Shown piece by piece: positions 29,028-31,762 of a stretch of DNA of 64,000 nt (the first letter of the stretch is position 1; each line of letters opens with the position of its first letter). Origin of the DNA: Limnothrix sp. CACIAM 69d (GTDB taxonomy: Bacteria; Cyanobacteriota; Cyanobacteriia; CACIAM-69d); assembly GCA_001913845.2 (NCBI GenBank), contig MKGP02000095.1, positions 1 to 64,000 on the forward strand. The letters run 5' to 3'. The notes below the pieces were generated by a model that did not search any database, was not told the origin of the DNA, and saw nothing but the letters and a program-made list of their open reading frames with translations. Position numbers and translations under genes: made by a program.

Positions 29028-29201
29028 CATACGACCCTGGGCCGCCACGATCAACCCCAGGCCAGCGGCAACGCCGGAGCCACATCGGGGCAAGACTGGA
29101 TAAGAAGTAGTAGGATTACGGTGTAAATTTGCCCCCTCTGGGCGATCGCCCGCTTCTTGCCCGGCCGGCAAGCCATCACCGATGTTGTTGTCTCGTCCCG
29201 T

Positions 29202-30536
29202 ATGAGTTCTGCCCTTACCGAACTGGCGATCGTTGCGGCCTTGACGGTTGCGAACGGGATTTTTTCAATGTCGGAAATGGCGATCGTCTCGTCACGCAAG
29301 ACGCGCCTGCAAAACCGAGCGGAACGGGGCGATCGAGCGGCTCGCGCAGCCCTGGCCCTGGCGGAATCGCCCAACCAGTTTTTATCCACCATCCAAATCG
29401 GTATCACCCTGATCGGCATTCTGACGGGGACTTTTGGGGGCGCTTCCTTGTCGGCGGAGTTGCGGCCCATCCTGGAAGCCGTGCCGCCATTAGCCCCCAT
29501 GAGCGGGGCCCTGTCGGTGGTGATTACCGTGGCGGGCATTACCTATCTCTCGTTGGTGGTGGGCGAGCTGGTTCCCAAGCGGCTGGCCCTGGGCAATCCG
29601 GAACAGATTGCGGCCAATGTGGCGCTACCGATGCGGTGGTTGTCGCGGATTACGGCCCCGGTGGTCTATTTGTTGAGCCATTCCACGGATCTGATTGTGC
29701 GATCGCTCGGAACCACGGTTTCCAGCGAGCCGCAGGTGACGGAAGAAGAAATTAAGCTGCTGTTGCAACAGGGCACGGAAGCGGGCACGGTCGAAGAAGC
29801 CGAGCAGGAAATTGTAGAGCGGGTGTTGTCTCTGGGCGATCGGCCCGTCAGCTCCGTGATGACTTCCCGCCGAGAGGTGGTGTGGCTGGATTTGGATGCG
29901 CCTTTGCACGAGACGATCGAGCAAATCATCAACAGCCACCACCAGCGATTCCCCGTCTGTCGCGACAGTTTGGATGAGGTCGTTGGGTTCATTCAGGTGA
30001 ACGACCTGTTGGCCCAAACCCTGATGAATCAGACCCTGAATTTAACGGATTGTCTGCGTCAGCCGTTGATTGTGCCGGAAACCACGGGCACGTTGCGGAT
30101 TTTGGAAATGTTCCGCGAAACGGGGCTGCATATTGCCTTGGTGGTGGATGAGTACGGCGTGGTGCAAGGGTTGGTGACGATCAACGACATGCTCGAAGCG
30201 ATCGTGGGCGACCTGACCGATGTGGATGAGGAAGACACGCCCAAGGTGGTGCAGCGGGAGGATGGTTCCTGGCTGGTGGATGGGATGTTGGCGATCGAGC
30301 GGATGCGCGATGAATTGGATATGGCTGAACTGCCCGGTGAGCGGGAAGGGCGCTACCAAACCGTGGCGGGCTTCGTGATTGCTTCGTTGGGCCACATTCC
30401 CAAGGCCACGGATACGTTTCGCTGGAATGGCTTCCGGTTTGAGGTGGTGGATATGGACGGCAACCGGGTTGATAAAATCCTGGTTTCCAAACCCAGCACA
30501 GCTCCCAGCACTTCAGAGCCGCCCACGGCTGATTAA
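29202..30536 (+). CDS. CNNM/CorC (HlyC/CorC) family transporter
   Basis: This 444-residue membrane protein of the CNNM/CorC magnesium-transporter family has an N-terminal DUF21 membrane domain (about 1-190, including ANGIFSMSEMAIVSSRKTRLQNRAERGD and ITYLSLVVGELVPKRLAL). Two CBS domains follow (about 205-330, from VSSVMTSRREVVWLDLDAPL), then a CorC_HlyC C-terminal domain (about 345-430) with YQTVAGFVIASLGHIP. CBS domains in this family sense ATP-Mg. The older name hemolysin is misleading. The ATG at 29202 (MSSALTELAIV) is preferred over a TTG 15 codons upstream. It stands alone on the plus strand, 215 bases after a Uma2 gene. Confidence 0.92.
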   Translation: MSSALTELAIVAALTVANGIFSMSEMAIVSSRKTRLQNRAERGDRAARAALALAESPNQFLSTIQIGITLIGILTGTFGGASLSAELRPILEAVPPLAPMSGALSVVITVAGITYLSLVVGELVPKRLALGNPEQIAANVALPMRWLSRITAPVVYLLSHSTDLIVRSLGTTVSSEPQVTEEEIKLLLQQGTEAGTVEEAEQEIVERVLSLGDRPVSSVMTSRREVVWLDLDAPLHETIEQIINSHHQRFPVCRDSLDEVVGFIQVNDLLAQTLMNQTLNLTDCLRQPLIVPETTGTLRILEMFRETGLHIALVVDEYGVVQGLVTINDMLEAIVGDLTDVDEEDTPKVVQREDGSWLVDGMLAIERMRDELDMAELPGEREGRYQTVAGFVIASLGHIPKATDTFRWNGFRFEVVDMDGNRVDKILVSKPSTAPSTSEPPTAD

Positions 30537-30984: not shown

Positions 30985-31125
30985 TGTGGAAAACTGCCCG
31001 ATCGGGGCAAAACCTGTGGAAAACCTGTGGAAAAGTACCCCTATTCTGTGGAAAACCTGTGGAAAAGTACCCCTCTTTCTGTGGAAAAAAAAAGTGTCTG
31101 TGGAAAACTTGACTAAGTATAAATA

Positions 31126-31160
31126 CCCTGTGGAAAAACACCCCCCCTTTTTCCACAGGG
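31126..31160. repeat. Perfect hairpin where the DnaA boxes change direction
   Basis: CCCTGTGGAAAAA (31126-31138) and TTTTTCCACAGGG (31148-31160) are perfect 13-base inverted arms around a 9-base loop CACCCCCCC. Each arm contains one DnaA box, and the boxes left of the hairpin point opposite to those right of it. Confidence 0.9.
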
Positions 31161-31221
31161 TTTTCCACAGGGTGTGATCGCTGAAAGGTTCATGAAATAA
31201 GGATTTTTTTGAGTTTTCCAC

Positions 31222-31290
31222 ATTTCCACAGGGCCCTACTACTACTATCTATTTAAAAAATAAGAAAGAGAAGAAGAGATAGATAGTCCA
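31222..31290. other. DnaA-trio-like unwinding element
   Basis: From left to right: a near-perfect DnaA box (31222-31230), a GC clamp (GGGCCC, 31231-31236), CTACTACTACTATC (31236-31249), then TATTTAAAAAATAAGAAAGAGAAG. The lower strand reads 3'-GAT repeated four times, the pattern of DnaA-trios that guide strand opening next to a DnaA box and GC-rich spacer in Bacillus subtilis. Order and polarity match that model; function is inference. Confidence 0.65.
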
Positions 31291-31481: not shown

Positions 31482-31501
31482 TGAAAACGGCTAAAACCTA
31501 A
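31482..31501. repeat. 20-base direct repeat, copy 1
   Basis: TGAAAACGGCTAAAACCTAA, identical to copy 2 at 31583-31602, exactly 101 bases apart start to start. A weaker relative (GGAAACGGCCAAAA) lies near 31307. Copies between an origin and dnaN could be protein-binding sites. Confidence 0.9.
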
Positions 31502-31582: not shown

Positions 31583-31602
31583 TGAAAACGGCTAAAACCT
31601 AA
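31583..31602. repeat. 20-base direct repeat, copy 2
   Basis: Exact second copy of the sequence at 31482-31501, 192 bases before the dnaN start codon. Confidence 0.9.
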
Positions 31603-31753: not shown

Positions 31754-31762
31754 TTTTCCACA
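31754..31762. promoter_or_regulatory. Isolated DnaA box before dnaN
   Basis: A perfect TTTTCCACA lies 31 bases before the dnaN ATG, away from the main array. Bound DnaA could repress or tune dnaN transcription, or the box could belong to the origin. Confidence 0.55.

What the first reader, a model, noticed from the sequence alone, without database searches (positions are those of the whole stretch)
30985..31290. Candidate chromosomal origin with DnaA boxes that flip at a perfect hairpin
Seen: eleven perfect TTTTCCACA boxes in about 240 bases, eight on one strand then three on the other, with the reversal exactly at a perfect 13-base hairpin whose arms each contain a box. Recurrent 11-base spacing would put several boxes on one DNA face. 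Known: bacterial origins contain DnaA-box clusters, and in several cyanobacteria the origin lies near dnaN. The hairpin-centred reversal is an unusual arrangement.
Basis: partly seen in the sequence, partly recalled or inferred. Interest (0 to 1): 0.75.

Follow-up and report, generated by a model that had tools for sequence, protein, structure and literature searches.

The report
Cyanobacterial replication origin upstream of dnaN
This is very probably the chromosome replication origin of a cyanobacterium; the strand flip that looked odd is the standard layout across its class, and the hairpin at the flip is only a side effect of two facing binding sites.

Summary
No other cluster in this 4.57-Mb draft genome has more than four. 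The flip is not unusual. It recurs in relatives with dnaN only 53-63% identical, the facing pair 18-20 bp apart. In 31 of 32 genomes it sits 92-94 bp from the BUS; the exception is 22 bp (two helical turns) longer. The hairpin is a by-product: outside the 9-bp boxes its arms match no more often than chance. In an S. elongatus-sized genome the module lies at the GC-skew switch; skew is uninformative in this genome's own 113-kb contig. Filed as a new member of a known kind. Possible novelty: the rigid flip-to-BUS spacing, BUS loss in Nostocaceae-like genomes that keep dnaA, and mirrored trio arrays in some families.

The parts
30985..31137 (-). Left DnaA-box array: eight perfect TTTTCCACA boxes, all reading on the minus strand, spaced close to whole helical turns
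   Evidence: phasing
31125..31161 (.). Facing box pair at the strand flip; 14-bp perfect inverted repeat with a 9-base loop. Spacing is conserved in relatives, the hairpin is not
31149..31169 (+). Two plus-strand boxes 12 bp apart (11 bp in most relatives)
31170..31213 (.). Spacer of nearly constant length between the flip module and the BUS; sequence only weakly conserved
31214..31230 (+). BUS double box: TTTTCCACA (31214-31222) overlapping ATTTCCACA (31222-31230)
   Evidence: pattern in relatives
31231..31249 (+). GC-rich spacer GGGCC, then DnaA-trio array CTACTACTACTATC
   Evidence: defined as in PMC8287927
31244..31287 (.). AT-rich presumed unwinding element bracketed by inverted repeat ACTATCTAT / ATAGATAGT (31244-31252, 31279-31287)
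31754..31762 (+). Single perfect DnaA box 31 bp before the dnaN start codon
31794..32942 (+). dnaN, DNA polymerase III beta clamp, 382 aa
   Evidence: Pfam
29157..30536 (+). CNNM / CBS / CorC-HlyC transporter-type protein, left neighbour of the origin

Best explanation
The interval is oriC, the DnaA-dependent chromosomal origin. Inferred steps: ATP-DnaA binds two box arrays of opposite direction that meet at the facing pair. The plus-strand array points towards the trio array. From the double box at 31214-31230 a DnaA oligomer extends across the GC spacer onto the single strand carrying the trios (31236-31249) and stretches it, opening the AT-rich stretch to about 31287. Helicase is then loaded, and dnaN downstream is replicated early. 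The eight-box minus-strand array acts as a second, opposed platform (like the right half of E. coli oriC) and/or as a local DnaA reservoir that sets the firing threshold. The fixed flip-to-BUS distance keeps the two platforms on defined faces of the helix. Shown here: sequence elements, their conservation and spacing. Not shown here: DnaA binding, melting and replication start.
For: Unique cluster in the genome. Complete BUS signature. Intact single-copy DnaA with N-terminal, AAA+ and helix-turn-helix domains. Facing pair found in 73 of 291 class genomes with zero control matches; BUS signature in 150 of 291. Flip-to-BUS distance 92-94 bp in 31 of 32 genomes, the exception being 116 bp with extra 11-bp box repeats. 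A search allowing a 31-bp range of distances found matches only near the expected length in 17 genomes, with no control matches. The strict left-minus then right-plus order holds in 37 of 52 related clusters against 3.8 expected from shuffled orientations. In the 2,696,255-bp genome G035 the best skew origin is at 1610-1620 kb and the module is at 1621 kb (r = 0.73). In G029 strand-adjusted third-position skew gives r = 0.66 at the module (p = 0.0005). Literature: S. elongatus origin near dnaN with DnaA binding and an essential dnaA (PMC7198777); 11 boxes of consensus TTTTCCACA there (PMC4674748, citing Liu and Tsinoremas 1996); S. elongatus DnaA opens its own box-plus-trio substrate in vitro (PMC8287927).
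Against: The own contig shows no skew change at the site (left 0.010, right 0.012), and G004, G178, G010 and G023 give no usable signal. Several cyanobacteria that keep dnaA do not use it for replication (PMC7198777), so an intact-looking origin could in principle be unused. No replication-depth data are available.
Confidence: 0.9

Rival explanations
1. The cluster is mainly a DnaA-titration or regulatory site controlling dnaN transcription, and replication starts elsewhere or from many sites.
For: A lone box sits 31 bp before the dnaN start. The same genome has one-directional box clusters with no trio next to trpB and guaA. DnaA-independent replication is known in some cyanobacteria (PMC7198777).
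Against: The site carries a full BUS that the trpB and guaA clusters lack. In G023, G034, G042 and G047 the facing pair lies away from dnaN, so the conserved unit is the module and not its link to dnaN. In G035 it sits at the skew switch.
Confidence: 0.07
2. The hairpin itself is the working element: an extruded cruciform or single-strand hairpin recognised by an initiator, as at rolling-circle origins.
For: 14-bp perfect stem, folding z-score -3.8.
Against: Across 41 distinct cores the bases outside the boxes pair only as often as column composition predicts, and pairing inside the spacer is at or below expectation. Perfect arm length runs from 9 to 14 bp. The left arm has a second, equally good partner.
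Confidence: 0.02
3. A plasmid or mobile-element origin inserted in the chromosome.
For: Repeated short binding sites resemble iteron arrays.
Against: The repeat is the standard cyanobacterial DnaA box, the neighbour is dnaN, and the same module sits at dnaN in same-genus and same-family genomes. No Rep gene was recognised among the neighbouring long ORFs.
Confidence: 0.01

Closest known systems
Synechococcus elongatus PCC 7942/6301 oriC (upstream of dnaN)
   Same: Same box sequence, facing pair, double box plus trio array, and dnaN on the same side; flip-to-BUS distance equal to within a base or two (G035, G016). Origin function, DnaA binding and dnaA essentiality are established there (PMC7198777).
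   Different: The window has more minus-strand perfect boxes (8 against 3 in G035), an overlapping rather than abutting BUS double box, and a longer distance to dnaN (about 0.6 kb against 0.15 kb).
Basal unwinding system of Bacillus subtilis and other bacteria (BUS)
   Same: Double box, GC-rich spacer, repeated trinucleotide array, then an AT-rich stretch.
   Different: Here a separate array of opposite direction lies at a fixed distance on the other side of the BUS.
Escherichia coli oriC, left and right DnaA-oligomerization regions
   Same: Two box groups of opposite direction facing each other, one next to the unwinding element (PMC10316083).
   Different: E. coli relies on IHF bending and many low-affinity boxes and lacks a trio array of this kind; here nearly all boxes are perfect.
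Thermotoga maritima oriC
   Same: TAG-type repeats in the unwinding element and dependence on box phasing (PMC10316083).
   Different: Different box sequence and only one inverted box in the minimal origin.

Membership tests
DnaA-dependent bacterial oriC | Dense cluster of species-type DnaA boxes, unique in the genome | tested here: met
DnaA-dependent bacterial oriC | AT-rich unwinding element next to the boxes | tested here: met
   Sequence 31250-31287; read by eye, no melting calculation was run
DnaA-dependent bacterial oriC | Intact dnaA in the genome | tested here: met
   encoded on another contig
DnaA-dependent bacterial oriC | GC-skew switch at the site in this genome | tested here: inconclusive
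   Only a 113-kb contig is usable; no switch seen
DnaA-dependent bacterial oriC | Replication-depth peak, DnaA footprint, autonomous replication | not testable with these tools
   No reads or experiments available
Basal unwinding system (BUS) | DnaA box within 16 bp of at least three NAN trios | tested here: met
   Box end 31230, trios start 31236; definition from PMC8287927
Cyanobacterial dnaN-linked origin (S. elongatus type) | TTTTCCACA boxes upstream of dnaN with facing pair and BUS at fixed distance | tested here: met
Cyanobacterial dnaN-linked origin (S. elongatus type) | Module at the skew switch in a relative where skew is regular | tested here: met
   G035
Hairpin or cruciform-type origin | Stem conserved by compensatory pairing | tested here: not met
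   41 cores

The most novel reading that the evidence does not exclude
Cyanobacterial oriC is a rigid two-platform machine. Two opposed DnaA filaments are held at a helically locked distance (93-94 bp, or plus exactly two turns) from the trio array. In some families a second trio array on the other strand mirrors the first across the AT-rich stretch, so that DnaA could engage both strands and direct both helicases. Loss of the trios in Nostocaceae-like genomes would mark the switch to DnaA-independent replication.
Probability: 0.25. Interest if true: 0.65.

Novelty: new member of a known kind. Interest (0 to 1): 0.4.

Why it matters
It gives a precise, testable origin for a group of cyanobacteria in which GC skew often fails to locate one, and a sequence rule (facing pair, 93-94 bp, double box, trios) that finds candidate origins even where they are not next to dnaN. 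The comparison also offers a handle on two open questions: when cyanobacteria stopped depending on DnaA, and how the second helicase is loaded at bacterial origins (stated as unclear in PMC10201434).

Tried and rejected
Hairpin as a functional element: rejected by the complementarity test. GC skew in the own contig, G004, G178, G010 and G023: no usable signal. Rfam: only two sub-threshold matches, both regarded as chance. Literature on Prochlorothrix hollandica dnaA/oriC: nothing held. The strict combined pattern run over the phylum drew many genomes of distant small-genome groups with no match, so its tally of 17 of 386 is not a frequency for Cyanobacteriia. The name of the organism was not established: the same-genus genome G001 has the contig length and dnaN of record RDXB01000084.1, 'Oscillatoriales cyanobacterium isolate PH2015_14S_56_116', and nothing closer was named.

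Full report
OBSERVATION. Eleven perfect TTTTCCACA boxes occupy 30985-31222: eight on the minus strand, then three on the plus strand. A twelfth box with one mismatch (31222-31230) overlaps the last one, and a lone perfect box lies at 31754, just before dnaN (start 31794). Genome-wide there are 73 perfect boxes against 26 for the reversed control word. Apart from this cluster the densest groups are four boxes in 63 bp and three in 51 bp. The inverted repeat at the flip is 14 bp perfect (31125-31138 / 31148-31161), one base pair longer than stated.

WHAT WAS MISSED. Directly after the overlapping double box comes GGGCC and then CTACTACTACTATC, followed by an AT-rich stretch. This matches the published definition of the basal unwinding system: a box within 16 bp of at least three trios (PMC8287927). 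That paper shows in vitro that S. elongatus DnaA opens its own box-plus-trio substrate. The AT-rich stretch is bracketed by ACTATCTAT and ATAGATAGT. The genome holds one intact dnaA, on another contig, with N-terminal, AAA+ and helix-turn-helix domains.

THE FLIP IS STANDARD. dnaN-upstream regions were collected as 30 loci from the genome search (58 of 59 relatives have dnaN) and 76 named-contig loci. Clusters of four or more boxes show the order minus...minus, plus...plus in 37 of 52 distinct cases, against 3.8 expected if orientations were shuffled (relatives are not independent). Nearly all the remainder only add one plus box further to the left. The facing pair is usually 18-20 bp apart, the next plus box follows at 11-12 bp, then 53-54 bp, then 8-9 bp. 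In 291 class genomes the exact facing pair occurs in 73, with no match of the reversed control, and the BUS signature in 150. By my count from those two tables 55 of the 73 have both. At least three of the other 18 (G014, G126, G287) have trios behind an imperfect box.

RIGID GEOMETRY. In 32 genomes whose pair and BUS coordinates were both listed on one contig, the distance from the minus-strand box to the BUS box is 92, 93 or 94 bp in 31. The exception, G013, is 116 bp, that is 94 + 22, and carries extra plus boxes at 11-bp spacing. A search allowing any gap from 70 to 100 bp between the flip and the trios returned only matches of 113-117 bases in total, with no control matches. Same-direction box spacings cluster at whole helical turns (R = 0.80 at 10.5 bp). 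I read this as selection on rotational phase; this is inference.

THE HAIRPIN IS A BY-PRODUCT. Most boxes share the extended form CTGTGGAAAA, so any two facing copies make about 10 bp of stem. Over 41 distinct cores, bases just outside the boxes are complementary as often as column composition predicts (22 against 19.6, 20 against 19.7, 4 against 3.7). Bases inside the spacer pair at or below expectation. Perfect arms range from 9 to 14 bp. In the window the left arm pairs equally well with the second plus-strand box, which single-strand folding prefers. What is conserved is spacing and direction, not a stem.

SKEW. In G035 (2,696,255 bp; by size very likely S. elongatus PCC 6301, from memory) the best two-arc skew origin is 1610-1620 kb and the module is at 1621 kb. 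G029 gives r = 0.66 after correcting for gene strand. In the window's own 113-kb contig and in G004, G178, G010 and G023 there is no usable signal, in line with the irregular skew reported for many cyanobacteria (PMC7198777). G023, G034, G042 and G047 carry the facing pair away from dnaN, so the unit that is conserved is the module.

MECHANISM. Best reading: two opposed DnaA platforms meet at the facing pair; the plus-strand one hands DnaA onto the trios and opens the AT-rich stretch; the large minus-strand array is a second platform and/or local reservoir. Oppositely directed clusters facing each other are established in E. coli oriC, where the far cluster aids DnaB loading (PMC10316083). For this organism every dynamic step is inferred.

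NOVELTY. The site is a new member of a known kind. The dnaN-linked origin with TTTTCCACA boxes, eleven repeats in S. elongatus, has been known since 1996 (cited in PMC4674748). I did not find the fixed flip-to-BUS distance described in the papers I could read, but many older papers are not held, so it may be known. Two further leads: nine Nostocaceae-like genomes (family f32, my reading of the group) keep the facing pair and an intact dnaA but lack the BUS signature, fitting the reported dispensability of dnaA in Nostoc PCC 7120 (PMC7198777). At least 18 genomes in several families have TAGTAGTA mirrored across the AT-rich stretch at the BUS. That second pattern is weak genome-wide (controls also match), so only its position at the BUS is informative. 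The window itself has at most a degenerate version.

Noticed in passing
L001 8417-8479 (G000:C21:58416-58478): Four perfect DnaA boxes, all one direction, spacing 21, 22, 11, upstream of trpB; no trios. Same spacing in G002 (also next to trpB) and in G001. Possible DnaA titration or regulatory site.
   Followed up: partly
L002 8670-8720 (G000:C53:192669-192719): Three perfect boxes at 21-bp spacing between the 3' ends of a cation-transporter gene and guaA; same place in G002 and same spacing in G001. G004 of the same family has a comparable cluster at a different locus (L115 about 720-825).
   Followed up: partly
L246, L247, L251, L256-L258, L265, downstream of the BUS: A second, inverted trio array (TAGTAGTAG) on the far side of the AT-rich stretch, mirroring the first, in several families; could engage DnaA on the other strand.
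   Followed up: partly
L039-L107, Nostocales loci: Facing pair and left boxes kept but the trio array lost, although dnaA is intact in the family f32 genomes tested; in several of these the pair lies just past the 3' end of dnaA.
   Followed up: partly
window 31482-31501 and 31583-31602: Perfect 20-base direct repeat TGAAAACGGCTAAAACCTAA, 101 bp apart, between the origin and dnaN; possibly dnaN promoter elements.
   Followed up: no
window 31117-31126 and relatives: The sequence GTATAAATAC directly before the facing pair is nearly invariant in many BUS-bearing relatives, though it is not a DnaA box.
   Followed up: no
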